DNA of 64,000 nucleotides. Source: Porpolomopsis calyptriformis (taxonomy: Eukaryota > Basidiomycota > Agaricomycetes > Agaricales > Hygrophoraceae). The position numbers and the translations under genes were made by a program. Where the stretch lies: contig OX621173.1 in NCBI GenBank assembly GCA_951640195.1, forward strand, positions 413,780 through 477,779, written 5' to 3'. The notes under the pieces are model-generated. The model saw only the letters and a list, made by a program, of their open reading frames with translations, searched no databases and was not told the origin of the DNA. Below are positions 16,337 through 64,000 of the stretch, piece after piece. Every line of letters starts with the position of its first letter. Position 1 is the stretch's first letter.

Positions 16337-18058
16337 TTCCTATTCTTCCTGCTCCTGCTCCTGCTCATCCTGCTCATCTTCAAAAATATCTAGATGCGAA
16401 TCCAGCTTAGAAGGGGTATCAAAGAAGACAAAGGGTTGATGAGGGCCACCTAGTTGCATGCTATAGATGACAACAGATTGGAACATGTACTGAAACATAG
16501 CTAAGGTGCTAGTTATAGAGCATGCATCTACAATGGATCCATTAGGCTTGATGAAGGAGAAAATAAAAGCTACATCTGGGATAGTGCCAATTTGGTTAGT
16601 AGAAGGAGTGATCACATGGAGAAGGGATCCAGCAAAGGTGTGGATAACCTTTACCATCCCCTTAGCATCAGTGGGAGACAGGGAGGCCTTCTAGAGGATT
16701 TCAGTGGCTTGAGTCTGCTTAGAGGTGATATTCAAAATAAAGTTGGCTAGCCTCAGCTAAGGGTTACTTCTGTCTTGCAACCACCAAAGCCAATACCTTA
16801 ATGTGAGAGTGATAGATCTCATTATTACAAGACTGTATCTCTTATAGGCTGCTGGAGAGATGGCAATATCTAGACTTGCTCTCTTTATTAAAAATTGATT
16901 TTGTTGGGAAAGAAAAAAAGGGGGGAAGGGTAGGTTTGCTAACCTTCCAGTAATTGCATATCACACTGCAGGTTGCAATGTGCTGAGATATCTATCTGCC
17001 AACTCAAGATAGACTGTATAGAGCTGTCTCACTAGCCTCAAGCTGTCTTCAAGCTTGCTGCCAAGCTGGGAGCTTAGAGGCTTAACCAAGCCAGCGATAG
17101 TGGCTAGTGTTGTGCAGAGATTCTTGAGGAAGGTTAGCCAACTGAGTAGATCAAGGTAGGAGGGGAAATTGGACCAGATGCTAATGATGGAGGTAGGGAT
17201 TAGCAGTTGAGGTGATAGCATTAGCAGGGGGGAATAAAATGAGGCTCTCACTCTCCTCTGAAATTAGCCTGAGTAGGCCAAGAAAATATCAATGACATAG
17301 GCAAACTTATAGTCCTTCAACTGGTGAGAGGGATTTGGGGACTTGCATGGGTATTTTTCATGATATCTGAGGTTGCTGAGGGGGCCCTTTCAGGAACTAT
17401 GGGGAGGGTTGTAGGACCAGCTGGGGCAGCCTCTGCATTAGTGAGCAGGCTAAGGTTTGAGACCTGGGATAGGAAGGGGGAGGTGGAAGATGTGTTTGAA
17501 AGTGAGGGGGGATTGGGATAGGTCTATGGAGAAAGCCTGCTAGATATAATCTATAATGAGTTGGGAGAGGTGCTTTTAGGATCTAGGAAGCAAAGGCACA
17601 TGCCTTCTATAGTTGAAGTGGGTGTAGAAGGTATCAAAGGGGATAAAGGATAAACACCTTTCACTAAAGAGCATGTGGAGGGGGATGTAGAAGTACATGC
17701 CAAAGTGAGTGAGGGTAGTACATCTGTGATAGTCTAGGCTGTTGGGGTTAGGTGGGAAGGTGTGGTAAGTTCAGGAGGTGGCGGAGGAAGAGAAAATGTT
17801 ATTTGCTAAGGTAAGCTGGGGGAGTGTAAAGGGCAAGTTAGGTATGGGCATGGGCATGGGCGTGGGCCTGTTTTGATAAGGAGAGTGATTTTCCTTGGGA
17901 GGTGTGTATAGAAAGGGTGTGGGAGAAGGGGGTGTGGGAGAAGGGGGTGTGGGAGAAGAGTGCTCTTCTTCCTGCTGCAGGGTAGGTAACTTTTGCCTTT
18001 TGGAGGGAAGGTCTATAAAAGGAATAGGTCTTTTTGTAGAGAGAGACATAGTAGGCAA
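16337..18058 (-). pseudogene. Decayed minus-strand gene of unknown function
   Basis: A plausible start at 18058 or slightly inside gives MSLSTKRPIPFIDLPSKRQK with a basic KRQK cluster and a repeat-encoded SPTPPSPTPP tract. Further frames on the same strand include SDIMKNTHASPQIPLTS, a longer helical piece (16961-17251, e.g. KPLSSQLGSKLEDSLRLVRQ and LYTVYLELADRYLSTLQPAV) and a C-terminal part with PSTNQIGTIPDVAFIFSFIK ending in an acidic DEQDEQEQEQEE tail at 16340. Many stops lie between. No family recognised. The downstream neighbour is AGTAAG DNA; upstream lies a minisatellite and then the Helitron. Confidence 0.4.
17917..17961. repeat. 15-bp tandem repeat x3 (GTGTGGGAGAAGGGG)
   Basis: Three near-identical 15-bp units; on the minus strand they encode the SPTPP repeats of the decayed gene. 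Confidence 0.8.
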
Positions 18059-18061
18059 TGT

Positions 18062-18256
18062 TGAGAGAGTTAGACAATGTTGAGAGAGTTAGTAGTGAGA
18101 AGCAATGTTGAGAGAGTCAGTAGTGAGAGACATGGGTGAAAGAGTTAGTAGCGAGAGGCAATGTTGAGAGAGTCAGTAGTGAGAGATGTGGGTGAGAGAG
18201 TTGGTAGTGAGAGGTAATGTTGAGAGAGTCAGTAGCAAGAGATGTAGGTGAGGGAG
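18062..18256. repeat. Minisatellite, 28-bp half-units in 56-bp units
   Basis: About seven 28-bp half-units related to GTTGAGAGAGTCAGTAGTGA, alternating between GCAATGTT- and GATGTGGGT- linked forms so that the higher-order period is 56 bp. It ends only six bases before the Helitron 5' terminus. Confidence 0.8.
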
Positions 18257-21200
18257 TAAGTATCTATACTATTAAGAGAGCTCCATGAGAAAGTGGATAT
18301 ATATGGGTTAAATATGAATTAGGAAGGTAGTCAGGTGACCAATCGATTCGTCAAGCGTGACTGATGTCACATTGTTACATGCACATGACTAAGCAAAGAT
18401 CTGTTATTTGTTTGTTTGGTTCATTTTGCCAACGATATTTATCAAACAAAAGTAAATATATGAATTAGGAATGTAGCTGACTAATCAATTCAATTTGACT
18501 AAGCATTCCATGGATTGTCCGCAGCATCATTGTTTAACTCCAACCACTATCACCCTCTGACACTTTCCTCTCTGCCAACCCCCCATCCCCTTCCCCCCCT
18601 CCTATTAGTACATATTGTTGTAGGCAGGGTGCTGTGCCCGTGTCACAGGCCAGAAAGCCATAAGTAGGGTAGTAGACACACAGCCACCTATCCCGAAACA
18701 AACTCTTGGAGTTTGCCCTTCAGTGGGTGACTTTGTGGGTTTTATACCCCATCTGTAGAAGTGTGCGCACCCTCACCATGGGGAAACGCGGCCCGGAAAC
18801 AAGTGCGAATTGGGGTAGGTTTGTGCTCCATATATCAAGTCTAGATAGTCCTGTACCTGGTTGAGTCTGGATGGTTATTAGCCAGATCAATCAATCCCTC
18901 TGAGCTATAAATCTCTGAAACCCTGCCTTTAGGAAAAAGGAGTTGTGTGTGTTGTATTTCAGAGTCTTGAATATACACATCTGGGCTGGCTTGATCTGCA
19001 GAGCTCAGTGCAGGGACCCCTAGATTGTGATTATTTTCTTTCCTTATAGAAACCAATCAGCAGACTCCTAGGAGTGCTGCACGTCATGGAGAACGAGAGC
19101 AGCATCAGTTAGATAGTCCTCAGTAGCGTCGTATTCCTCAGCCTTAGCCTTAGCATGGTCCAATTGCTCCTATTGCTTTACCTATTAACCAACAACACCA
19201 TCCTAGACCTATAGGACCTGTTGGACCTGATCCATTTATTGTACCAACTGCTTCACAGTTTGCTGCTATACCTGTGAGGGTTGGGGGGGGGAATAGAGGA
19301 AGAGGAAGAGGAAGAGGAAGAACCATCCAACCTATTAGTGATCTAGGACCTTTACAAGGAGTTTTTGGTCAATTTCAGCTTAATTTGGATATCAATGAGG
19401 GACAACCTATATTACCACCACTACCACCACTACCACCACCTCCTCCCCCTCCTTTGAACCAACAAGATTTGACTATAAATTTCCCACCTTTACTACCACA
19501 ACCAAGGCTGCCTATAGCACGTCATCCTTTCAACAAAAACCAGATTGAGGTTCACAATTTAGGCCCTATGAATGTTCTATGTCCAGATTGTCATGCATTA
19601 CATTGGGTTGCTGAGAAATTAGTACATTCCTCTTTGGTTACTCCTAAGTTTGGTATGTGCTGCTTTAGTGGTAAAATCAGACTAGGCCAGCTTGAAGATT
19701 TGCCACCAGAGCTATATCAGCTATACTATGGTGATGATGACTGTGCCAAAAGGTTCCTTGAAAAGATCCGAAATTACAACTCTGCTTTGGCTTTCACCTC
19801 TGTAGGGCAAGATGCTTATAAACACCTTCAGCTTGATGAGTCTGTTAATGATGGACATAGCCCATGGCTTTACCGACTTCATGGAGAACTTCACCATATT
19901 ACCAGTTCTCTTCTTCCTCCTCATGGAAGGCCTCCATTATATTTACAGCTCTACATCTATGACCCAGACCTTGCTTTAAATTATCGCTTAGGTCACCAGA
20001 GTAACTCAAACTTGGATAGAGCTACTATGCAGATCCTTCAGGATATGCTTTATCGTAAACATCCTTCTGTCCAACTCTATAAACAAGCCTATGAGTTGAC
20101 TAAAAACCTTCCTCTAGAAGAAAACTGCAAAATAGCTCTTAGATTTGATAGTGCATGTGATCAGCAACGTTATAATCTTCCCAATGCTGCTGTCAAAGAG
20201 ATTGCTATTATTCTTCCAGGTACTGGTGACCAGAATACAGAAGTACGTAATATCCTACTCTGGAGACAAGGTGGTGGTCTTAAAAGGATTAATGATCTTA
20301 GCCCTCTATATCACTCCTTGCATTTTGTCTTACTCTTTCCCACTGGGCAGCTTGGTTGGCATCCAGGCTTAAAGCTGACTCTTAGTGATACAAATGATGC
20401 ACCTGGAGAGGGAAATGAAGCTCATCCTTTAGGTGAAGAGCCTGTTGCTGAGGGGCAAGCTATTGTAACTAGAAAAAAGTGTACTAAGATGTCTCAGATT
20501 GAATACTTTGCCTATCATCTTCATCCTAGACTCAATGAGTCTAACCATATTTTCAAGGCTGGAAGACTATTCCAGGAGTTTATTGTTGACTGTTGGGCAG
20601 CTGCTGAACAATCTTGCTTAAACTGGTTAAAAAATAATCAGAACACTATCCGCTCTGATGTTTATAAAGGCTTGGTTGATGCTGTAGCAGCTAATCCTGA
20701 AGTAGAGAGTCATAATCTTGGTCAGCGTACTATTCTCCCTTCTAGCTTTTCTGGAAGTAGTAGAAATATGGTCCAGCATTGTCAGGATGCTTTGGCTATT
20801 AATCGTCATTTCAAGGGTGCTGATCTCTTTATGACTGTTACTGCCAATCCTAATTGGCCAGAAATACAAGCTGAACTGCTTCCAAGGCAAACTGTTGCTG
20901 ATAGACCTGACTTGGTTTCACGTGTCTTCAAATTAAAAGTTGCTGCTATAATTAAAGACTTGGAGAAAGGTGCCCTTGGCAAATCTGTTGCCCATGTCTT
21001 CACTACAGAGTTTCAGAAGAGGAGTCTTCCACATGTACATATGGTTATCTTCTTCCATGAGGATTCTAAGCTTAAAACTGCAGAAGATATTAATAGTTTA
21101 ATCTCTGCAGAGTTCCCAGATAAGGATACTGAACCTGAGCTTTATTCTTTAGTTCTCAAGCATATGGTTCATGGTCCCTGTGGTACTCAGAATCCTCATT

Positions 21201-21762
21201 CTCCATGTATGGTTAATGGAAAATGCTCTAAAAACTTTCCAAAACCTTTTAGAGACCAGACTACTCTATCTGAAGACTCTTATGCCTGTTTGAGGAGATG
21301 TAACAATGGGGTTATTCACAAAGTTGGTGATAAAGATGTTGATAATTGCTGGGTTGTTCCATATTGTCCTTGGCTTACCTGGAAATATCATTGCCATATA
21401 AACATGGAGTGTGTAATCTCTATCAAGGCTATCAAGTACATTTACAAGTACATTTATAAAGGCCATGATCGCACTACTATGGAATTTGGGAAAGCCAAGG
21501 ATGAAATAAAGCATTATCTAGATGCACGCTATGTATCCTCTTGTGAGGCTATTTGGCATATCTTTCAGTTTTCAATGCATATGGAATGGCCTCCTGTAGT
21601 TCGTCTTCACATCCATCTTGAAGGGCAGCACCTGGTGACTTGGAGAGAAGATAGTTCAATTCCTATACAGGAAGTAATAGAGCAGGGTGCTAATAAAGAT
21701 AGTACTTTGATGGCTTGGTTTAAAGCTAATCGGAAATACCCTGCTGCATGTCAACTTCTCTA

Positions 21763-22131
21763 TGTCACGAACACTTTTTCCTTTTTCCTTTTAGTCATAC
21801 TTGATCAGTCTTCATTCCGTTTATCCTTCCGCTTTACCGTTTTATATATAGATTGATCACATGTACCTTCCTTCCGACTCTTTCACGAGTCACATTCCGT
21901 TTCCGCTATTGTTTTCGTGACTCTTCACTAGTCACATTCCGGATTCCGCTTTGTAATCGTACACACGACTGACTCATGGTGACTCAGGTAGTTAGTATAT
22001 AAAGCCTGATCTTTAGTCAGTAAGTTAAGTTCGATTCCTAGTTAGCTCCCCCACTCTTTAGTCGAATTCCATTTCCCTCATCAGCCCCTCCAACGCGAGA
22101 AGTAAAACCCTTCGACTACCGAATCATAACA
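21763..22131 (+). repeat. 5' LTR of chromovirus 1
   Basis: TGTCACGAAC...CATAACA, 369 bp. Holds a TATA box (TATATAAA 21996-22003) and a predicted transcript start near 22026. Differs from the 3' LTR at CGCG versus CACG and at ACCG versus ACTG. Confidence 0.95.
21996..22003 (+). promoter_or_regulatory. LTR TATA box
   Basis: TATATAAA, 31 bp upstream of the 11-nt self-primer word AAGTTCGATTC; the spacing predicts that the mRNA begins at or next to this word. Confidence 0.75.
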
Positions 22132-22132
22132 A

Positions 22133-22143
22133 GAATCGAACTT
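22133..22143 (+). other. Primer-binding site for self-priming (GAATCGAACTT)
   Basis: Starts two bases after the LTR. It is not complementary to initiator tRNA-Met but is exactly complementary to AAGTTCGATTC (22027-22037) in the LTR, the predicted 5' end of the transcript. This is the arrangement known from Tf1/sushi elements, where the mRNA 5' end primes reverse transcription. Confidence 0.8.
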
Positions 22144-22306
22144 CCTTCTTGCGCATCAAACTACCTCCACTCTGGATCCTACTGAAGACTTAACAAGGTC
22201 AATCTTCTCATCCGCAGATTCAGATACTCCCTTTCAACCTATAGTATTCCAAACCCCTGCACAATCCATCATCCCCCTTTCCCCCTCGTCATCATCATTG
22301 ACATCA

Positions 22307-23722
22307 ATGTCTCAACAAGAATACGAAGCTGATCAAAGTGTTCCCGCACCCGGACCCAGTAACATTCCCCCTACCATTCAAGAAGAAGAAGAAGACGTCG
22401 TCCCATTCAATATCGAACAAGAGCTCAAAGATCTAAGAGCACAAATCGATCAATTCCATGGCTGGTACTACAACGAAGTCGACGTCAATGACAAGCTCCG
22501 AAAGGAATTAAAAGCTCTCAAAGAAAGCCGACGAGAAGACTCAGAACCAACCACCCCTCCCCCACGACGACGATCTGTACTTCGGGGACCTGGACTTTCT
22601 CCCTCGAATCCTTTCGTTTACCCTGCAAGAAGAACTGAATCCGTCCAACCTCCATCCCAACCAACCTTTCCCACTCAACTACCCACCCAGACAACTGCTC
22701 CCCCTACATTCCCAGCCCCCACCAAAATCAAAATCGCCGACCCAACCGAATATGATGGAACTTCCGAGAAGCTTGAAGACTTCATTCACCAATGTCGACT
22801 CAACTTTGTGGTCAAAGACTACAACGACAAACAGAAAATTGTCTACATGCTCTCTTATCTCGGTGACGGCAATCCATGGGCTTGGGGATGACTGTTCACG
22901 GAAGGAGTTGATAGAACGAGGAATTTCATATGGGACTACGCAACATTTTTGGACGATTTCAGGGAAGCTTTCGGAAGGATTAACCTGGTGGCGAAGGCGC
23001 GGATCGAGCTAGAAAAGGTGAAGATGACAGGAACGATAGAAGACTACAACCTTCGGTTCATGCAACACGCAGCAAGAACTGAGTACAACGAGACCGCTCT
23101 ACTTCGGTTTTACAAAGCCGGACTCCCCCAGCCAATCCGAACACGGATTTACTCGATGGACAACATGCCATCGACCTTGCTGGACTGGACGACGAAAGCG
23201 GCCCAGTTCGAAGAACAGTACCAGGAGCAACGAGCTGAACAAGCGTTGTGGTCAAGTCGAGATCAAAAAGGAAAGAAGTCTGAAGTCAAATCAAATCCCC
23301 GAGGAAACCCTTCCCGCTCCACCACCACCATCACTTCATCCCCGATCAAACAAGAATCAAGAGAAGCCTCCCTCAAGACAGCGAAACGAGACAACTCCTC
23401 CATCACTTGCTACAACTGTGGCAAAAAGGGACATTACGCCAATGAATGTCGAAGCCCACGTGCTGAAGACGTTCTGGCACGTCAAGAATCCTCAACTTCT
23501 ACTCGAGGAAAAGGAGGAAATCGCGGTCGAGGCAAAGGACGAAATGTCCGAATGATCAATTGGGTCGATACAGAAGAATCGGAAGCGCGGATAGAGGAAG
23601 TACCAGAGGATGACGAAAAAAGGATGGCAAAAGACGACCTGAAGGATATGGGAATCGCGAATTGGGACAAGGAGAGACGGGCTGCGCTAGCTCGAGCGTT
23701 AAAAGAGCAAAAGGATTTTTAG
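22307..23722 (+). pseudogene. gag: gag of chromovirus 1 (one TGA)
   Basis: First ATG in frame gives MSQQEYEADQSVPAPGPSNI; the frame is open further upstream without an ATG. Order: acidic N-terminus, short coiled coil (NIEQELKDLRAQIDQF), Pro-rich linker, capsid domain (KIKIADPTEYDGTSEKLEDF onward), and CCHC knuckle CYNCGKKGHYANEC followed by an Arg/Gly-rich tail (RGKGGNRGRGKGR). A TGA at 22888-22890 within the capsid domain (AWG-stop-LFTEGVD) is the only break, probably from CGA or TGG. Ends KEQKDF-TAG at 23720-23722, which overlaps the -1 shift site into pol. Gag packages the RNA in the virus-like particle. Confidence 0.9.
23714..23722 (+). promoter_or_regulatory. Putative -1 frameshift site at the gag stop (GAT TTT TAG)
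   Basis: The P-site TTT can slip back one base onto T-TT and re-pair perfectly, after which reading continues TTA GTC in the pol frame. The second chromovirus has GGT TTT TAA at the same place (60128-60136), also ending gag in a KEQxF peptide. Conservation of the slippery T run right at the stop in diverged copies supports function. Confidence 0.6.
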
Positions 23723-26700
23723 TCTGGCCAAGTGCTAAATGCCCGAGCACTTTGGCTGTGTCCCACGTATGTGTACCACCATCTATGAAAAGTTTTCGTT
23801 TTCTTGGCACACTTGAACAGGGCAAAGGCGCTCTCGAATTCTATCTTTGGATCACGAGTGCCGACAATCTTCGACGAGTGGCTATCATAGCACTCATTGA
23901 CTCTGGCGCCTCAGGGAATTTTATTGACGAAGCATTCGTTCGTCAAATGGAGATATCGACCTATCCGTTGGATGAGGTTGTACCGGTACGAAATGCTGAT
24001 GGTTCCGAGAACCGAGGAGGTCCCATCACACACGACACAGACCTGTTTATCGAGGCACCAGATCTATCTTTTCGAGAACGAATCCGGTTGGAGGTCACCA
24101 ACTTAGGAAGAAAACAACAGGTCATCCTCGGCTTCCCATGGCTTTTGCGACACAACCCCACCATCAATTGGACAAAAGGCACCTTAACTTTTGCGTCTGG
24201 TGACACGCTGTTCAGTAGTATGCGAGTCGGAGTGTTGCCCCCACAGGAAGAACTCTACGTTTTTGATTCGAGTCTGAAACACGACTCCTTTATCCGTTTG
24301 GTCGGAGTTAACCACTCCCGACCAGTTTCCATCGAGGAGGACATCAAATCCTTCATTCCCAGTCGTTATCACAATTTCTGGTGTGTTTTCCATACCGCAG
24401 AATTCGACAAACTTCCTCCTCGACATTCCTTTGATCATGCGATCAACCTCTACCCGAACACCAAATTTCAAGTCGGAAAACTCTATCCCCTTTCCCCCTA
24501 TGAACAGGTGGAACTTAACAAGTTTATTGACGAAAATCTCAGAACAGGTTGGATACGTCCATCGAAATCACCACAAGCTGCTCCTTTCTTCTTTGCGAAA
24601 AAGGCCGAAGAGATCAATGCTAAAGGTCTCAGTGCTGGTCTACGTCCCATCCAGGACTATCGTTACATCAACTCGAAAACCATTCCTGATCGTTATCCCC
24701 TCCCCCTTCTATCGGAAATTCTCCAAGTGCCGAAGCTTGCTACTGCTTCGCTCTTCACTGTCATCGATATCCGATGGGGATTTAACAACATACGACTCAA
24801 GGAAGGCAACGAATGGAAGGCAGCCTTCATCACCAATCGAGGACTCTTCGAACCAACCGTTATGTTCTTTGGACTACGAAACTCCCCAGCATCTTTTCAA
24901 TGAATGATAGACGTTCTCTTTAAACCCGTTCTGGACTCTGGCTGTGTTCACATCTATATCGACGACATTCTCATTATGGGCGACACCCCCGAAGAAATCC
25001 GCCACTGGACTGACGAAACCCTTAAATTCATGGAGAAGAATCAACTATCCGCCAAACCTGTCAAATGCCAAATGGAGAAGACCTCTGTTACGTACCTTGG
25101 TACAATCATCAGTAAAGGTCAACTCGCTATCAATCCAAAAAAGGTGGACGCCATTATCAATTGGCCGACACCCCAAAAACTACGAGATCTCCAATCCTTC
25201 CTTGGCACCACCAACTTCTGGCGACGTTATATCAAAAGTTTCTCCTCAGTCGTTCGTCCCCTCTGTGGCCTTTTACGGAAAGACCAACCTTGGGATTGGT
25301 CTCCTTTGTGTCAGAAAGCCTTTGAACAACTTAAATATCTCGTCACTACAGCCCCTGTCCTTCTTACCCCACGGCCAGACCTTCCTTACCTCTTGGAAAC
25401 CGATGCCTCTGATTTCGGTATTGGCACGGTTCTATCTCAGAAACACGACAATGGTTGGCACCCCGTTGGCTTTTTCTTGAAGTCCCTACTCCCTGCCGAG
25501 TACAATTATCCTACCCATGACCTGGAGATGCTTGCGATCGTCACTTCCCTCAAGTATTGGCGCTATCTTTTAGAAGGCGCAAGGGATACTGTATTGATAA
25601 AAACAGACAATTTGGCGCTCAAGTACTTCATGCAGAACAGATCCCTCTCCAGACGACAAGCACGTTGGATGGAATACTTAGGCAGATTCGACTTCAAGAT
25701 CGAATACTCTCCTGGAGTCAAGAACAAAGCCGATGGACTCTCCCGCCAACCTGATCACCGTCGTACAGAAAAAGAAGAACTAGAAGGCAAAGCCCTCCTC
25801 CCCCCCGAACGCTTCATCAATGCTATTATTTCCATGTCCGAACCCTCTTTCATGTCAAGACTTCGCTTCCCCGACTTCAATCAAATCCCAGAGGACATTC
25901 GCATCAAATTATCCGATTCCTCTTCCGGCTACTCCTTCACTGACGGAATTGTGAGAGATGCAGGAGATCGTATTGTCGTGCCAGCGGACGTATCGCTACG
26001 CACAGAGATAATTCGATTGACCCACTCCCTACCCCATGGAGGCCATCCCGGAATCGAGAAGACACATGAGCTTGTGTTGCGGAACTACACCTGGAGTAGT
26101 GCTGCCCCTGAAATCCGTGTATTCGTATCATCCTGTCCGACCTGCCAACAAGTCAAGCTCTATCCTTCGAAGCCTGCAGGTCTCCTGGAACCTATTCCCC
26201 CTTCGTCTCGACCTTGGGAAGAAATCACCGCCGATCTGATCGTGGAACTCCCCCAATCATCTGGCTACGATGCTATCTTAGTCGTTGTCGATCGCTTTAC
26301 CAAACGCGCTCACTTTATCCCGACGACTTCGAATATTTCTGCAGAAGGAGTCGCAAAACTCTTCAGGGACAATGTATGGAAACACCACGGCTGGCCAAAG
26401 AAGATCATAACCGATCGAGGAACTCAATTCGCTTCCAAATTCGCGAAAGCTCTCAATACTCATTTGGGAATCATCTCCGGTCTATCCACCGCTTATCATC
26501 CCCAAACTGATGGTCAAACGGAACGCACCAATCAAGAACTTGAACAATACCTTCGTTTATATACAAACTTTATGCAAGACGATTGGTCCAACTGGCTATC
26601 CCCAGCTGAATTCGCGTATAACAACCGACAACACTCCTCGACGAAACACACTCCCTTTTACCTTGACACTGGCCAACATCCCTTCGTCCCGTCTATCCCT

Positions 26701-27270
26701 GCGATCCCTACTTCCAATCCTGCAGCAGATGCCTTTCACAATCATCTCACAGAAGCCCGTAAAGAAGCCACAAAAGCTCTAGAAGCAATGGCCGAAACTA
26801 TGAAACGCTTCGCAGATCGTAAACGGAAAGATACCCAACTCCAAATAGGTCAATTTGCTTATCTTGATACCCGTAACTTAAAAACAGGTCGTCCAACCCT
26901 CAAACTTGATGTCCGACATACTGGACCATTCAAAGTTCTAGAAAAAATCGGAAAAGTCTCTTATCACCTGGCCCTTCCTTTATCATGGAAAATACACGAC
27001 GTCTTTCACGTTTCACTCCTGAGACCCGCTAATATTAACTCCGATCTCCATCCAGAGGAAGTAGATGATAATCTCCGTCCACCTCTGGATGTTATTCAAG
27101 AGAAAGAGGAATACGAGGTCAAACGAATTCTCCAACACCACGGGTCTACCCAACGTCATACGTATTTGGTTAAATGGGTCGGCTATCCCATTGAGGAAGC
27201 AACTTGGGAGCCGAAGAAGAATCTCCTCCATGCGAAAGAACGAATTCTAGAATACGAACACTCAATTTAA
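23723..27270 (+). pseudogene. pol: pol of chromovirus 1 (one TGA in RT)
   Basis: Frame -1 relative to gag; open from 23662. Domains in order: aspartic protease DSGASGNFID (catalytic Asp codon at 23899); RT with IPDRYPLPLL, DIRWGFNNIRL, FGLRNSPASFQ then a TGA (24901-24903, family has Arg) and the catalytic YIDD (24955-24966); RNase H (LETDASDFGIG, HDLEMLAIV, KTDNLALKYF, NKADGLSRQPD); integrase H2C2 finger, catalytic Asp at 26233 and 26413 and Glu at 26521 (35 residues between the last two); GPY/F module (TGPFKVLEKIGKVSYHL); C-terminal chromodomain (YEVKRILQHH...LVKWVGYPIEEATWEP). Ends TAA 27268. The single TGA is the only defect I see. By family knowledge the chromodomain directs integration to modified histones. 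Confidence 0.95.
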
Positions 27271-27400
27271 ACAGTGACCAAATCACTCTTTCACGGTATC
27301 AACTCCCCTCGTTTATATTTTCACTTCATCACCTTTCCAAACTCCGACACATCCTTATAATCTCTTTCATCTCCGTCTTTCACTAGAAATCGACATCACT

Positions 27401-27979
27401 ATGCCCGCAGAACGCTCACACCAAACCGCTCGCAAATCAACCGGTGGTCGTCCACCCTGCGCTCCTCATATGTCCACTGGAGGACAACCCCCTCGCCGCG
27501 CTCCCCCTCCGCTCGCTTCTACCTCCTCCGCCTACGGTGAAGCTGAGCTCGCCGGACAACTCTGGCAACACAACCGACGCGCGCGCAACCGAGACCTTCC
27601 CATATGGCCAGAGGAAATCATCGCACCACCCATCCCACCCGAGCAAATCATTGAGTCGCTGCAGAAGGACGTCGAATACTACAAAAGTGAAATCGCGAGA
27701 CTGAACGAAGAGCTGTACAATCAAGGAATGAGTTTAGATGGAAAGAGAAGAGTGAGTGAGTATTGGCGAGAACAGGCCAAACACTGGGAGACGAAATACG
27801 AGGAAGTCGTAAAGGTACTTCCCCATCTTGATTCCCTGGTCCCTCCTGTTTTCCCAGGTCCACTCATCGTTCCCCCCGGTTCGTCGTCGAACCCCATCAC
27901 CATCCCCAACGACGATGATACTTCCCCGGCCGACATTATTTCCCTGTCAACCGCCGTCTCCGACAAGGACTTAATCTAG
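27401..27979 (+). CDS. ORF3 of chromovirus 1: histone H3-tail-like N-terminus plus coiled coil
   Basis: 192 residues, between pol and the 3' LTR, intact. Residues 8-16 are QTARKSTGG, identical to histone H3 residues 5-13 (includes K9 in ARKS), followed by RPP where H3 has KAP. A second partial copy, STGGQPPRR, is at 25-33 (H3: STGGKAPRK). After a Pro/Ser linker, residues about 83-140 form a likely coiled coil (IIESLQKDVEYYKSEIARLN). The tail has ITIPNDDD (166-173), which resembles a SUMO-interacting motif. No envelope-like features (no signal peptide or membrane segment). The ATG codon and frame are clear; the equivalent ORF begins at 63838 in the second element but lacks the H3-like motif. 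How it is expressed (readthrough, splicing, own promoter) is not visible. Function unknown; chromatin-related role is inference. Confidence 0.8.
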   Translation: MPAERSHQTARKSTGGRPPCAPHMSTGGQPPRRAPPPLASTSSAYGEAELAGQLWQHNRRARNRDLPIWPEEIIAPPIPPEQIIESLQKDVEYYKSEIARLNEELYNQGMSLDGKRRVSEYWREQAKHWETKYEEVVKVLPHLDSLVPPVFPGPLIVPPGSSSNPITIPNDDDTSPADIISLSTAVSDKDLI

Positions 27980-28059
27980 TCCTTCACCTCCTCCGCACCC
28001 TTCAACACTCTCGAAGCCGCCTCGAATTTCGGGATGAAATTCCTTTTAGTGTGGGTGTA

Positions 28060-28428
28060 TGTCACGAACACTTTTTCCTTTTTCCTTTTAGTCATACTTG
28101 ATCAGTCTTCATTCCGTTTATCCTTCCGCTTTACCGTTTTATATATAGATTGATCACATGTACCTTCCTTCCGACTCTTTCACGAGTCACATTCCGTTTC
28201 CGCTATTGTTTTCGTGACTCTTCACTAGTCACATTCCGGATTCCGCTTTGTAATCGTACACACGACTGACTCATGGTGACTCAGGTAGTTAGTATATAAA
28301 GCCTGATCTTTAGTCAGTAAGTTAAGTTCGATTCCTAGTTAGCTCCCCCACTCTTTAGTCGAATTCCATTTCCCTCATCAGCCCCTCCAACACGAGAAGT
28401 AAAACCCTTCGACTACTGAATCATAACA
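28060..28428 (+). repeat. 3' LTR of chromovirus 1
   Basis: 369 bp, same ends as the 5' LTR, preceded by AGTGTGGGTGTA as the likely plus-strand primer region. Two differences from the 5' LTR indicate recent insertion. Confidence 0.95.
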
Positions 28429-30524
28429 CTCTACCAGGATATGCCATTGAAATTTACCTGGAATCTAAAGACAAGAGAGTGGAAACCAAGAAAGAAGAAT
28501 CTTTTTGCTATTGGACGAATGTACTATGTTCATCCTTCCTCTGGAGATCGCTTTTATCTGCGCTTGCTTCTTACAGCAGTCAAAGGTGCTACATCATTTC
28601 AGCATTTACATACTGTAAATGATGTTACTTATAATACCTTTAAAGAAGTATGCATTGCTATGGGTCTTCTAGAGGATGATAGTGAATGGATTCAGTGTCT
28701 TGAAGAAGCTGGACATATGCAAACTGGTAGTCAACTTCACTCTCTTTTTGTTACAATTCTCATTGGTGGCACTCCTACTGAGCCTCATACCCTTTGGGAG
28801 CGCTTTTGCCCTACCATTTGTGATGATTTGCATTATAAGCTTCAACAGAAAGGCATTCCTGATCCTACTAATGATCAAGTTTATGATTATGGTCTTTATT
28901 TAATGGATCAGTTGCTTAAAGCTCAAGGCTCTTCTCTTGAAAAGTTTCCTCCTATGCCTTTATCTCAGATGAATTAGGCACAAATATTGGGTAACCACCT
29001 TATCATGGAGCAGTTAGATTACAATCAAGAAGAACAGCAGCAGTTAGCTACAGAGTGCATTCTTCATCTCAATGCTGATCAGCGCTCTGCCTTTGATCAG
29101 ATTTTACATGCTGTTGAGTCTCACTCAGGTCAATGTTTCTTCCTCCATGGTCCAGGTGGTACTGGAAAGACTTATGTTTACAACACTTTGTGTTATGCTC
29201 TTCGTGCTCAAGGTCTTATTGTTCTCTGTGTTGCTTCCTCAGGTATTGCTGCACTACTATTAAATGGTGGATGCACTTCTCATTCTAGGCTAAAAATCCC
29301 TATCAATATAAATGAGAATTCCTTCTGTGCTATCAAAAAAACTTCTTTAGAAGCTGAATTAATTCAGAAGGCTTCTCTCCTCATTTATGATGAAGTTACT
29401 ATGCAGCATAGACATTGCCAGGAAGCTTTTGACCGTACTTGCAGAGATATTAGAGCTTCAGACAAACTATTTGGTGGTCTAACTGTTGTCTTTGGAGGGG
29501 ACTTTCAGCAAATCCTCCCTGTTATTATCAAAGGCTCTAGACCTATCATTGTCAATGCTTGCATTCAAAGTTCATACATCTGGCACCATCTTAAAATCCT
29601 CCATTTGAAGATGAATATGCGCTTAGGTAGTAATCAAGAAGAAGCTGACTTTGCAAAGTGGCAATTAGAAGTTGGACATGGCAAATATACTGATGCTGAT
29701 AATAATATCACCTTGCCTCCATACTTTGGTTGTTCTCAAAATACTCTGGAGTCTTTGGTGGACACATTATACCCTGGCATTGACCAATTGCCTTACCCCC
29801 CTGATCAGTACTTTATGGAAAGATGCATTCTTTCTGCAAGGAATGATGATGTTGATAATCTTAACTCTAAAATTCTCAACAAATTTCCTGGTGCTGAAAG
29901 AGTGTATTATAGTGCAGACTCTATCAAAGAGGACACAGCTGATCCTGGAGCAGTGTTGATGTATCCCACAGAGTATCTTAATACTATCAATGCCTCAGGT
30001 CTTCCTTTGCATAAGCTTACTTTGAAGACTGGATCTCCAGTTATGGTTCTACATAATCTCAATCCAGCAGAGGGTGTCTGTAATGGCACAAGAGGAATTA
30101 TAACACGTATGAGCCATCGTGTCTTAGAGATTCGTATTCTTGGAGGTGATCATAATGGAAGACATGTTTTCTTACCTAGAATCAAGTGCTATCCTTCTAA
30201 TGCACAGATTCCCTTCCAACTTTGTCGTGTTCAATTTGCAGTTAGGAATGCTTTCTCTATGTCAATTAATAAAGCTCAAGGACAGTCTTTGAAACATATT
30301 GGTCTGGATCTTCATTCTCCTGTTTTTACTCATGGTCAATTTTATGTTGCTATCTCAAGGGCTACTTCTGTCAACAGAATAAAAGCTATCTGGGATTCTA
30401 CCTCTCCTACTCCTGTAACTAAAAATTTTGTATTTCCTGAAGTACTCTTGGATTAGTTGTACTTGCAATATATTTATTTAAGCTGAACTCAAAACCTAAG
30501 AATTGCTGAGTAATAAAATATACA

Positions 30525-60136: not shown

Positions 60137-63100
60137 GGAGTCCGAACGTTTCGCCTGCTGTTACGGACGAATCTACTCAAGAATGTATCACCACCCCATG
60201 CAATCTATTTCAAATTCTTGGTACTCTTGAAGAAGGCAATCTCAGACTCATTTTGGATGTTTGGATTGAAGCTACTGATACTGGTCGACGTGTTCCGGCC
60301 ACTGCTCTGGTTGATAGTGGAGCCTCTGGAAATTTCATGGATGAATCTTTCGCAACTCGCCACAACTTTACTCTAACACGATTGGAAACCCCAATCCCTG
60401 TACAGAATGCCGATGGATCTGAAAACCGAGGAGGACCCATCGAGAACAATATTGATATTTGGTTAGAGGCTCCTGGAGGACACAATGAATGGATCCGATT
60501 AGAAGTGACTGATCTCGGATCTAAGATGGATATTATCCTCAGCTTCCCGTGGCTCAAAAAGCACAACCCCAACATCGATTGGAAAGAGGCAACACTGGCT
60601 CTGGATAGCAAAGATTTCCCTCTTCCACGATGGATAGTCGATGATGCGGAACCACTGGGAATGGAATCGGTCACGCTGGCCATGAATCGACGTGTATCAA
60701 AGTTGGATGAATCCCGAGCCAGCATGGTGGAAGAAGATATGTGAAAGTTTGTACCGGAGGTATACTGGAGAGACTACTCTAGCATCTTTGCCAAAGAATC
60801 CTTCGACCGCCTTCCACCGCATTTGGAATTCGACCACGCCATAGAACTGGACGAAACTTTCAGACCAGTCAAAGGCACGAAATACGCAATGTCCCCTCTT
60901 GAGATGGATCACCTACACAAATTCATCGACGAAAACCTATCCACTGGATGAATACGGACTTCCAAGTCAAAGCAAGTCTCTCCATTCTTCTTTGGAAAGA
61001 AAGCTGAAGAAGTGAATGCTAAAGGTAAGAACACTGGCTTACGCCCTATTAAAGATTACCACTACCTTAACGAACATACGGTCCCTGACCATTACCCCCT
61101 CCCTCTACTCCACCAAATCCTCCAACGACCAAAGCTTTTGACAGCATCTCTGTTTACGGTCATGGATATCCAATGGGGATTCAATGACATCAGGATTAAG
61201 GAAGGCGATGAATGGAAAGCTGCTTTTATCACTGAAGCAGGTGCCTTTGAACCCACCATTATGTTCTTTGGTTTGCGTAACTCTCCAGCCACCTTTCAAC
61301 GGATGATCGACACAAGATTCAAAGAAGTCCTAGACTCTGGAAATGTTTTCATTTATATTGATGACGTGCTTGTTTGTGGAGATGATTTACAAGAATTGCG
61401 ACATTGGACTTTCAAAACCCTGAACATTATGAAGAGACACGGTCTCTCATGTAAACCCATCAAATGCCAGTTCGAGAAGGAAGAAGTCATTTATCTCGGA
61501 GTTGTCCTATCCAAAGGACAAATCACCACCAATCCAAAGAAGGTCGACGCTATCATGTCTTGGCCTGTTCTAGAAACAGTGAAACAACTCCAATCCTTCT
61601 TAGGCAGTGTGAACTTTTGGCGGAGATATATCAAGGGTTTTTCCAAAGTCGCTACCCCTCTCTACGAACTCTTGCACAATGAAACTGTGTGGGAATGGAC
61701 TCCCCGAAGACAAGAAGCCTTCGACAATATCAAATCCCTTTTGACAAACGCGCCTGTCCTCCATATTCCTGATCGCGATCTCCCTTATTGCCTAGAGACC
61801 AACGCTTCCATCATTGGAATCGCAGGAATACTCTCCCAGCTTCACGACGGACACTGGAAACCTGTTGGCTATTATTCAAGATCTACCTCTCCTGCCGAAA
61901 AGAACTACCCAACCCACGATCTAGAGCTCCTAGTGATCATTGACTCTTTCAAACAGTGGTACCACCTCCTTGAAGGAGCAAGACACGACATTCTCATCAG
62001 GACAGACAGTTTGGCTTTACGATATTTCTCCAAGAATCTTCGCTTATCGAATTGCCAAACTCATTGGTCTGAATATCTGTCCAGATTCGGGTTCAAAATC
62101 AAATACGTTCCAGGTAGGAAGAACAAAGCCAATGGCTTATCCAGACGCCCGGATTACTTGCCCAACGACAAAGCCGATGTGGAGAACGAAGTTCTGATAG
62201 CATGCAACTGATGGGTAAATTCAATTGTCAAATTGTCGAATTCAAGCCTTCTCTCTAGATTACGCTTCAAAATCCCACTCCCACAGAAGATCCAAGATAA
62301 ACTCGAGGATGCCTCACTCACTTGGACCCAAGCTGATGGGCTTGTACGCGATGTTGAAGGTCGAATAGTGGTGCCAGAGGAAGTATCTTTGCACACAGAC
62401 ATTATACGACTGTCCCACGCCTACCCCCACGCTGGCCACCCTGGCATTGAGAAGATGAAGGAACTCGTACTTCGTAATTTTATTTGGGATGGTGCCCCAC
62501 AAGACATCACCAACTACGTTCGATCCTGTCCAGCTTGTCAACAAAACAAGAACTTCCCCTCGAAGCCGTCAGGACTACTCCAACCCATACCCCCTTCTAC
62601 AGAACCATGGAAAGAAATCACTGTCGATCTCATCGTCGAACTCCCCAAGTCACAAGGCTATGATGCTGTGATGGTCATTGTCGATCGCTTCACTAAACGT
62701 GCTCACTTCATTCCGACAACATCCAATCTTTCATCAGAAGGCGCTGCGAAACTCTTTCGGAATCACATCTGGAAACATCATGGATGGCCCCAAAAGGTTA
62801 TATCCGATCGTGGAGTACAATTTGCGTCCAAATTCACAGAAGCCCTCAATAACTCCTTAGGGATCATCTCCGGTCTCTCCACTGCGTATCATCCTCAAAC
62901 AGATGGTCAAACGGAATGTACCAATCAAGAACTCGAAGTTTACTTACGTTTCTATACCAACTTCATGCAGGACGACTGGTCGGAATGGCTCGCTTCTATG
63001 GAATTTGCCTACAACAATTGACAACACTCTGCAACTTCACAATCACCATTCTATATGGAATATGGACGTCATCCCCATCTCCCCACGACTATTCTGGATC

Positions 63101-63678
63101 AAAGCAACGTGCCTGCAGCCAATACCTTTCATGAATGCCTCACACGTGCACAGCAAAACGCCGAATGATCTTTACAGAAGACAATGGAATCGATGAAGAA
63201 ATACGCTGATCATAAACGGAAATCTTCACCCTCCTATGAAGAAGGAGATCTGGTCTGGTTGGATACCAAGAATATCAAGACGACACGACCCTCGAAGAAG
63301 CTGGACAATCGACGAACCGGACCATTCAAGGTCTTGAAGAAGATATCGGACCTTGTCTATCTGATCGACATTCCTAAAACATGGAGACTGCACCCAGTCT
63401 TTCACGTTTCACTCCTGAGACCCAACGTCGGAAATGAATTGCTCCACCCTGATGTCATCAACACATCACAACCTCCTCCTGATCTGATCGAAAATAAAGA
63501 AGAATATGAGGTTGAATCCATATTACAACATTCCGGAGCTAAATGACACCAAAAATACTTGGTCAAATGGAAAGGCTATCTAATCAAAGAAGCCACTTGG
63601 GAAGACCGATTGAACATTTTATGACACACCAAGGAAATTGTGAAGACGTACGAAGATTCAATTCAAACAGCAACCTGA
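60137..63678 (+). pseudogene. pol: pol of chromovirus 2 (seven internal TGA)
   Basis: Frame -1 to gag. Protease DSGASGNFMDESF; RT with VPDHYPLPLL, MDIQWGFNDIRI, FGLRNSPATFQRM and catalytic YIDD (near 61357); RNase H (LETNASIIGIAGI, where the family Asp of TDAS is Asn; HDLELLVIID; RTDSLALRYF; NKANGLSRRPD); integrase HAYPHAGHPGIEKMKELVLR...CPACQ finger and DDE core (VDLIVEL, SDRGVQF, TECTNQELE); GPY/F (TGPFKVLKKISDLVYLID); chromodomain (YEVESILQHSG...YLVKWKGYLIKEATWED). TGA stops at 60742, 60949, 62209, 63019, 63166, 63544 and 63622; end at TGA 63676. Where copy 1 can be compared, several correspond to CGA or TGG. Confidence 0.92.
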
Positions 63679-63837
63679 TTCTATTCATTTGTTTGTCATC
63701 ATCCCATCTGCCAAGAATTGACCTCTATTTTTAGAACCACTCCTTATAAACTACAAGACGTCTCCGCTTTCCTTCACGACTCAATAACTTTGTTGCAACA
63801 ACCAAGACTACTCAACCAAAACCGCAACAACTTCATC

Positions 63838-64000
63838 ATGCCCGCTACACGATCCACACGATCCCCCTCCCCTCAAGTCACCATCCAGCATTCCGGACGA
63901 ATTCCCTTGTCTGCTGCCCACTCCCCTACCCCCAGTCCCTCCACTTCTACCTCCTCCACTCAACAATTACATCGACAAGCTCGTGCTCACACTGAAGATT
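63838..64000 (+). CDS. ORF3 of chromovirus 2, partial at window end
   Basis: ATG at 63838 in the same position after pol as in copy 1. The start MPATRSTRSPSP is basic and Ser/Pro-rich; the later STSSTQQLHRQARAHTED aligns loosely with STSSAYGEAELAGQLWQHNR-RARNRD of copy 1. It lacks the H3-like QTARKSTGG. Open to the window end. Shows that ORF3 is a feature of the lineage rather than a chance frame. Confidence 0.65.
   Translation, partial: MPATRSTRSPSPQVTIQHSGRIPLSAAHSPTPSPSTSTSSTQQLHRQARAHTED

What the first reader, a model, noticed from the sequence alone, without database searches (positions are those of the whole stretch)
27401..27979. Chromovirus ORF3 begins with an exact 9-residue histone H3 tail match around K9
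ORF3 residues 8-16 (QTARKSTGG) equal histone H3 residues 5-13, including the ARKS methylation site, and a second partial STGG-x-PPRR repeat follows, echoing H3 STGGKAPRK. The same element encodes an integrase with a C-terminal chromodomain, a module known in chromoviruses to read H3K9 methylation. A retrotransposon that carries both a reader and a mimic of its own target could recruit or titrate H3K9 methyltransferase/HP1 proteins, tether its pre-integration complex, or self-silence. A coiled coil (about residues 83-140) and a SUMO-interacting-like ITIPNDDD support a chromatin-bound oligomer. The sequence match is direct; the function is inference.
Basis: partly seen in the sequence, partly recalled or inferred. 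Interest (0 to 1): 0.93.

Follow-up and report, generated by a model that had tools for sequence, protein, structure and literature searches.

The report
Retrotransposon protein with histone H3-like tail
A probably fungal jumping gene that carries a reader domain of the kind that binds silencing marks on chromatin also makes a small protein whose start copies, letter for letter, the part of histone H3 where that mark is written, and evolution has kept this copy; what it does has not been tested.

Summary
ORF3 (27401-27979, 192 aa) reads QTARKSTGG at residues 8-16, identical to H3 5-13. Of 70 exact TARKSTGG sites in the 33.5-Mb genome, 67 lie in ORF3 copies and 3 in H3-type genes. Across 93 copies, internal branches show 17 silent and 0 replacement changes in the motif, CpG changes excluded (p = 0.0005 against the rest of ORF3). 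A second chromovirus family, 57% identical over the integrase end and chromodomain, has a very different ORF3 that starts MPREVRYARKSTGRRPPR; lysine stands at 94 of 94 near-matching sites. The shared ARKSTG is H3 7-12 and contains R8-G12, which DIM-5 needs (PMC3248561). Against: a third chromovirus family with an intact chromodomain cage reads mostly AIRR(S/A)GRIP, no lysine at 72 sites; the 'second repeat' is not conserved; with terminal branches included the motif is no more constrained than the coil. Methylation and binding were not tested, and no ORF3 from another genome could be read. Best reading: an H3K9-type mimic that engages the host methyltransferase and chromodomain readers (about 0.5). 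Main rival: a generic basic motif.

The parts
27401..27979 (+). ORF3, 192 aa: H3-like N-terminal tail, Pro/Ser-rich linker, predicted coiled coil, acidic C-terminus
   Evidence: 129 matching stretches in the own genome; purifying selection
27422..27448 (+). QTARKSTGG, identical to histone H3 residues 5-13; Lys12 sits at the H3K9 position (codon 27434-27436)
27473..27499 (+). STGGQPPRR, partial echo; present in this family but not conserved like the core
   Evidence: internal branches 6 silent, 7 replacement; absent in the one second-family ORF3 read
27638..27829 (+). Helical, coiled-coil-like segment of ORF3 (residues 80-143)
   Evidence: low-confidence model; residues 83-140 have internal-branch dN/dS 0.11
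27112..27258 (+). Chromodomain at the integrase C-terminus; aromatic cage Y, W, Y present
   Evidence: Pfam PF00385; aligns with HP1 1kna and other methyl-lysine readers by sequence; Y/W/Y in 50 of 50 gap-free rows, 48 distinct copies; cage positions recalled from HP1 structures
24904..27270 (+). 3' part of pol: RT end, RNase H, integrase, chromodomain; preceded by an in-frame stop at 24901-24903
23662..24903 (+). 5' part of pol: aspartic protease and RT start, ends at the in-frame stop
22298..23722 (+). gag in two pieces (in-frame stop at 22889-22891), CCHC knuckle in the second
21763..22131 (+). 5' LTR, 369 bp, two mismatches to the 3' LTR
28060..28428 (+). 3' LTR; element flanked by the 5-bp duplication CTCTA (21758-21762 and 28429-28433)

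Best explanation
ORF3 is the third gene of a multi-copy chromovirus in a probably fungal genome. Its N-terminus, probably disordered, carries a short linear motif that copies the histone H3 tail around K9, and selection holds it to that sequence. Most likely mechanism (inferred): Lys12 is methylated by the host's SUV39/Clr4/DIM-5-type enzyme, and the methylated tail docks on HP1-type chromodomains (the host's HP1, the chromodomain on the element's own integrase, or both). The coiled coil would make the protein a multivalent adaptor or competitor that steers the element's complexes in heterochromatin or blunts silencing at new copies. Shown: the sequence match, the selection, the reader domain in the same element, the shared core in a second family, and Pre-SET/SET and cytosine-methyltransferase domain matches in the host genome. 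Not shown: expression, methylation, binding, location, effect on transposition.
For: Exact 9-residue match; the 8-residue TARKSTGG occurs in the genome only in ORF3 copies and H3-type genes. Of 93 copies, T9 and T14 are kept in 93, S13 in 92, K12 and Q8 in 91, A10 and G15 in 87, G16 in 86, while most codons vary silently (K: AAG 69, AAA 22; S: TCT 57, TCA 19, TCC 16). Internal branches, CpG changes excluded: motif 17 silent, 0 replacement (p = 4.7e-4 against the rest of ORF3); the lowest windows of 9 codons start at residues 8-11, and one at 138 (6:0). In 55 stop-free copies the motif shows 19 silent, 1 replacement over all branches. R11 is lost in 19 of 93, to H (12), C (6) or Y (1), which fits CpG decay of CGC. 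Second family: ARKSTG at the same place in an ORF3 of 27% identity; at 94 near-matching sites K and T in 94, G in 93. The core shared by both families, H3 7-12, contains R8-G12, the residues that DIM-5 needs in vitro, whereas K14R, A15M and P16A had no significant effect on it (PMC3248561, passages); both families differ from H3 at 14 (R) and 15 (P). Chromodomain cage intact. Host Pre-SET and SET matches side by side on one strand of C14.
Against: The third chromovirus family keeps the cage but has no lysine in the motif, so reader and mimic are not obligate partners and the motif may descend from a basic motif of another role. With terminal branches included, the motif in the 93 copies (38 silent, 21 replacement, dN/dS 0.19) is no more constrained than the coil (0.13); decaying copies dilute the signal, but this is the less selective count. 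In the 55 stop-free copies the internal-branch contrast is not significant (10:0, p = 0.07), and residues 1-24 as a whole are conserved there. K12: 0 K-to-R among 16 changes against 13 K-to-R and 55 silent at other lysines, p = 0.11, so avoidance of Arg is not shown. The second family lacks Q5, T6 and G13, and the DIM-5 paper's discussion also lists G13 as required in vitro. The H3 pool should far outnumber ORF3 (inference), which speaks against global titration. No homologue was found outside this genome. No HP1 gene could be shown (its control rang nowhere).
Confidence: 0.5

Rival explanations
1. Generic basic N-terminal motif. The chromovirus ORF3s share an ancestral Arg-rich motif, roughly A-R-(K/R)-S-x-G-(R/G)-x-P, for nucleic-acid binding or nuclear entry. 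In the window's family evolution within that constraint happened to produce the H3 string; no methyl-lysine chemistry is involved.
For: Third family: at 72 sites within three mismatches, 49 read AIRR(S/A)GRIP with silent codon changes and none has a lysine at the motif's basic positions (tally plus three sites it missed). RPPR follows the core in families 1 and 2. The third family starts MPATRS, like MPAERS of family 1. No significant avoidance of K-to-R at K12 (p = 0.11).
Against: A basic motif does not explain T9 and T14 in 93 of 93 and Q8 in 91, lysine at 91 of 93 and 94 of 94 sites, or a 9-residue exact H3 match. The homology of the third family's motif with the other two rests on eye alignment.
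Confidence: 0.3
2. H3-tail mimic, but not for K9 methylation: the tail copies H3 for nuclear import, kinase recognition (S10/T11) or another H3-tail binder.
For: S13 and T14 are conserved beside K12, and RPPR follows in both families.
Against: The lowest windows start at residues 8-11, so the constraint is not on the RPPR end alone; K14, which I recall as an importin contact of H3, is replaced by R.
Confidence: 0.12
3. The tail is a captured piece of a histone H3 gene that came along by exon capture, with no or little function of its own.
For: In one H3-type gene (L110) a 25-base exon between two apparent introns encodes exactly QTARKSTG plus the first base of G13, the length of the match; in the other two genes an apparent intron follows STGG directly (by eye).
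Against: No transcript evidence for the junctions. Purifying selection on the motif excludes a functionless passenger. DNA similarity is no more than shared codons: the window copy differs from the L109 exon at 1 base and the commonest version from the L108 exon at 2, that is, different subfamilies resemble different genes (by eye). As an origin it is compatible with the best explanation.
Confidence: 0.04
4. Chance resemblance in a neutrally evolving reading frame.
Against: 67 ORF3 sites, 3 H3-type genes and no other site in 33.5 Mb, reversed control 0; 17:0 silent to replacement on internal branches; recurrence in a second family.
Confidence: 0.02

Closest known systems
Viral histone H3 mimics: SARS-CoV-2 ORF8 (ARKS) and influenza A H3N2 NS1 (ARSK) (PMC10208167, passages read)
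   Same: Small non-histone protein of a genetic parasite with a short copy of the H3 tail, aimed at H3-tail enzymes or readers.
   Different: There a 4-residue motif in an animal virus, with function tested; here 9 residues in an LTR retrotransposon that also encodes a chromodomain, function untested.
Cellular H3K9 mimics methylated by G9a/GLP and read by chromodomains, e.g. ATF7IP and MPP8 (PMC6172828, title and start of abstract in the listing)
   Same: Non-histone lysine methylated by an H3K9 methyltransferase and read by a chromodomain protein.
   Different: Host proteins of mammals; no transposon.
VANC anti-silencing proteins of Arabidopsis VANDAL transposons (PMC5735166, PMC10398659, starts of abstracts in the listing)
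   Same: An extra transposon gene that acts on host silencing; comparable only if the decoy version holds.
   Different: VANCs are sequence-specific; no histone-like motif appears in what I saw; they belong to DNA transposons (recalled).
Chromoviruses (Ty3/Gypsy with chromodomain integrase), incl. [quoted passage not shown]
   Same: Gag, protease-RT-RNase H-integrase-chromodomain, extra ORF.
   Different: An H3-like tail on the extra ORF is not mentioned in the passages seen; figures and supplements were not seen.
Extra ORFs of bdelloid LTR retrotransposons (PMC5408684, title and start of abstract in the listing)
   Same: LTR retrotransposon with an additional ORF besides gag and pol.
   Different: Nothing on histone-like motifs in what I saw.

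Membership tests
Chromovirus (Ty3/Gypsy LTR retrotransposon) | Chromodomain at the C-terminus of integrase | tested here: met
   PF00385 E 1.8e-12 at residues 737-785 of the 788-aa frame; aligned with HP1 and other readers
Chromovirus (Ty3/Gypsy LTR retrotransposon) | Order protease, RT, RNase H, integrase; CCHC gag; LTRs with short target duplication | tested here: met
   (domains, in separate frames because of in-frame stops), (369-bp LTRs, CTCTA duplication)
Histone H3K9-type mimic | ARK(S/T) lysine motif in a non-histone protein | tested here: met
Histone H3K9-type mimic | Motif kept by selection | tested here: met
   internal branches 17:0 in 93 copies (all branches 38:21; stop-free set 19:1); second family (conservation only)
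Histone H3K9-type mimic | Accessible, unstructured tail | tested here: inconclusive
   No secondary structure at residues 1-45, but mean pLDDT 56 without alignment
Histone H3K9-type mimic | Methylated by an H3K9 methyltransferase and bound by HP1-type chromodomains | not testable with these tools
   Needs biochemistry
Obligate reader-mimic pair (mimic wherever the chromodomain cage is kept) | Every related chromovirus with a caged chromodomain also carries the K9-like lysine | tested here: not met
   Third family: the copy in the window keeps Y/W/Y; no lysine at 72 motif sites
Histone H3 (as a protein family) | Histone fold | tested here: not met
   No core-histone Pfam match in ORF3 at E up to 1
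ORF3 homologues outside this genome | H3-like tail in chromoviruses of other species | tested here: inconclusive
   Protein searches found none at E 0.001, but families 1 and 2 themselves share only 27%, so diverged ORF3s would be missed; pol relatives of up to 67% identity are in the database, but their contigs could not be fetched

The most novel reading that the evidence does not exclude
The element encodes both halves of an H3K9me switch: a chromodomain reader on its integrase and a mimic on ORF3 that the host's own H3K9 methyltransferase writes. Host silencing activity would thereby assemble or license the integration complex, or be diverted by it, so that the element turns the silencing mark into its own targeting signal.
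Probability: 0.18. Interest if true: 0.93.

Novelty: new variant of a known kind. Interest (0 to 1): 0.72.

Why it matters
Histone-tail mimicry is known from viruses and host proteins. The listings (titles and starts of abstracts, 20 of 106, 20 of 129, 15 of 1,978, 12 of 141, 10 of 10 and 25 of 27 papers; open-licence papers only) showed no transposon-encoded H3 mimic, let alone one beside a chromodomain in the same element. If the tail is methylated, it gives a direct handle on how chromoviruses interact with the machinery that both silences and guides them. It is testable with one peptide and one purified chromodomain.

Tried and rejected
A spliced ORF3 mRNA: the window copy has a pyrimidine-rich AG just before the ATG, but the majority base of 51 aligned copies at that place is not G; rejected. 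An obligate link between cage and mimic: refuted by the third family. DNA-level proof of H3 gene capture: codon matches are close to different H3-type genes in different subfamilies; inconclusive. ORF3 relatives elsewhere: none; pol-based scans of viral contigs none, of genome contigs one distant locus (L113, 35% identity), not followed. Chromo-shadow search for host HP1: no match, but the control rang nowhere, so not evidence. Downstream of two further chromodomain matches (L024, L044) no ORF3 was recognised by eye. Wrong turns: one search translated L029 in the wrong orientation and was dropped; one search gave first counts with a one-way CpG definition (motif 21:2 on internal branches), replaced; one search tallied 69 of the 72 sites because I mistyped two counts, and the three missing sites, recounted by eye, all read AIRR(S/A)GRIP and are added. 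PMC2259100 (chromodomains direct integration to heterochromatin) is not held; I know it by recall and as a reference in PMC3248453.

Rows dropped before counts: one search lists 129 rows, by my count 109 of this ORF3 family and 20 of the distant coil. Of 107 non-H3 loci held, 104 gave a tblastn match; 10 of the non-chromodomain family or fragments and one duplicate (L035) were left out, giving 93. Seven decayed or broken copies (12 rows) were not fetched, and a second partial copy on L035 and the piece on L050 were not used. In the stop-free set 55 of 93 remained after removing copies with stops and six passenger copies. The chromodomain table covers 50 gap-free rows of 52 at 75% identity or more; the window and L001, and L023 and L035, are the same copies, so 48 distinct; rows below 75% were printed apart, and one of them (L036) has a stop at the cage tryptophan.

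Full report
What is there. The window lies in a 33.5-Mb genome held without a name. An LTR retrotransposon occupies 21763-28428. Its 369-bp LTRs differ at two positions and it is flanked by the duplication CTCTA. It sits between a Helitron-type frame (PF14214, 19274-21856) and a PIF1 helicase frame (28987-30456), so it probably split a Helitron. Its protein frames are protease-RT and RT-RNase H-integrase-chromodomain, with a CCHC gag. This copy has in-frame stops in gag (22889-22891) and in RT (24901-24903), so it is not intact. ORF3 (27401-27979) starts 130 bases after the pol stop.

The observation. ORF3 residues 8-16 are QTARKSTGG. Three H3-type genes found in this genome by the same string encode the same residues. 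A fully degenerate TARKSTGG pattern hits the genome 70 times: 67 sites fall in ORF3 matches and 3 in the H3-type genes (assigned by eye), with none in the reversed control. The resemblance is therefore exact, specific and repeated.

Selection. I extracted 93 ORF3 copies. T9 and T14 are kept in 93 of 93, S13 in 92, K12 and Q8 in 91, A10 and G15 in 87, G16 in 86, and R11 in 74. The 19 lost R11 are H (12), C (6) or Y (1), which fits decay of methylated CpG in CGC codons. The codons underneath vary silently at eight of the nine positions (Q8 and G15 in one copy each; G16 in none). On a tree of the copies, counting only internal branches and leaving CpG changes out, residues 8-16 have 17 silent and 0 replacement changes. 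The other parts: residues 1-7 11:8 (dN/dS 0.17), 17-24 13:4 (0.08), STGGxPPRR 6:7 (0.46), 34-82 82:38 (0.15), coil 138:73 (0.11), C-terminus 54:58 (0.39). The motif differs from the rest with p = 4.7e-4; the windows of nine codons without any replacement start at residues 8 to 11 and at 138. Over all branches of the 93 copies the motif stands at 38:21 (0.19), not below the coil (0.13): many of these copies are decaying. In the 55 stop-free copies all branches give 19:1 in the motif (0.02) against 140:57 in the coil (0.09); there the internal-branch contrast is not significant (10:0, p = 0.07), and residues 1-24 as a whole have no internal replacement. Parsimony on related copies overstates precision; the direction is clear. 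Avoidance of K-to-R at K12 is not significant by itself (0 of 16 changes, against 13 K-to-R and 55 silent at other lysines, p = 0.11).

A second family. Searching for ARKSTG (125 sites, 14 in the reversed control, first 100 listed) showed a further set of sites about 150 bases downstream of the chromodomain of another chromovirus family, which is 57% identical over the integrase end and chromodomain. One such ORF3 was fetched: MPREVRYARKSTGRRPPRGNP..., otherwise only 27% identical to ORF3 of the window. At 94 sites within three mismatches of its motif the lysine and the threonine are kept in 94, the glycine in 93, and the full ARKSTG in 50; in 34 of the other 44 the arginine is C or H. This set is biased to near matches, and the lysine codon never varies even silently, so it speaks for conservation, not by itself for selection.

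A third family, against. The 55%-identical family has an ORF3 that begins MPATRSTQSPSPQVAIRRSGRIP. At 72 sites within three mismatches, 49 read AIRR(S/A)GRIP with silent codon changes, the rest are decayed or have T at the S/A place, and none has a lysine in this stretch (plus three sites it missed). A decayed member of that family lies in the window itself at 61303-64000. Its chromodomain still has the Y, W and Y of the cage, and its ORF3 starts at 63838 with MPATRSTRSPSPQVTIQHSGRIP. So a caged chromodomain does not require the mimic, and the three N-termini may share an old basic motif. A non-chromodomain Ty3-like element also has an ORF downstream of pol with a related coil (36% identity over about 75 residues) and no such tail.

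Mechanism. In Neurospora, DIM-5 activity in vitro needs R8 to G12 of H3 and shows no significant loss with K14R, A15M or P16A; G13M was slightly reduced and the discussion also lists G13 as required. The A7M strain has reduced DNA methylation, but unlike R8A it does not show greatly reduced H3K9me3 or mislocalised HP1 (PMC3248561, passages). The core common to both families is H3 7-12; both depart from H3 at 14 and 15, and the second family also at 13. The first family in addition matches Q5 and T6, which belong to the stretch that HP1 chromodomains grip (recalled structures such as 1KNE, whose sequence group appears). The genome has one Pre-SET match next to a SET match on the same strand of C14 and cytosine-methyltransferase matches, so a writer of this class is probably present. 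From this I infer that the tail is written by the host enzyme and read by chromodomains, with the coil giving valency. Which reader, and whether the result is tethering, licensing or decoy, the data do not say. Global titration of H3 readers seems unlikely on numbers; action at the element's own complexes or insertion sites is more plausible.

Origin. One H3-type gene (L110) has what looks like a 25-base exon that encodes exactly QTARKSTG plus one base of G13; in the other two an apparent intron follows STGG (junctions read by eye). The match in ORF3 ends at the same place. This suggests exon capture, but DNA similarity is not beyond shared codons, so it remains an idea.

What is known. Viral H3 mimics with four-residue motifs are reviewed in PMC10208167 (passages; 'transposon' does not occur in its main text). 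Fungal chromoviruses with an additional ORF of unknown function were drawn in PMC2864245 (passages). PMC3248453, a survey of fungal LTR elements, has no occurrence of 'ORF3', 'additional ORF' or 'histone'. The listings showed no transposon-encoded H3 mimic; only open-licence papers are searched, long lists are cut, and most rows were seen as titles and starts of abstracts.

Verdict. Observation confirmed; constraint on the motif shown on internal branches; mimicry of H3K9 as its function is the best single reading at about 0.5, with a generic basic motif as the serious rival.

Noticed in passing
window 61303-64000: A second, decayed chromovirus of another family (57.8% pol identity) with its own ORF3 from 63838, cut by the window end; chromodomain cage kept, no ARKS motif.
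   Followed up: partly
window 19274-21856 and 28987-30456: Helitron_like_N and PIF1 frames on either side of the retrotransposon: it appears to have inserted into a Helitron.
   Followed up: partly
L031, L032, L033, L034, L049 (related: L036): A chromovirus ORF3 piece with QTARKSTGG (G-to-S in L034, R-to-H in L036) is carried inside or beside a non-chromodomain Ty3-like element at several places, as if captured and copied as a passenger.
   Followed up: partly
L037 3003-3524 and similar loci: The non-chromodomain Ty3-like element has its own ORF downstream of pol with a coil related to that of ORF3 but no H3-like tail: extra coiled-coil genes are shared between distant Ty3 groups.
   Followed up: partly
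L110 (H3-type gene, C2:3412800-3413050): An H3-type gene with an apparent 25-base exon that encodes QTARKSTG(G) alone, between two introns.
   Followed up: no
ORF3 copies: Old copies decay largely at CpG (R to C or H), as expected if the elements are cytosine-methylated.
   Followed up: no
window 18033-18256: Tandem repeat of 28-base units upstream of the Helitron frame.
   Followed up: no
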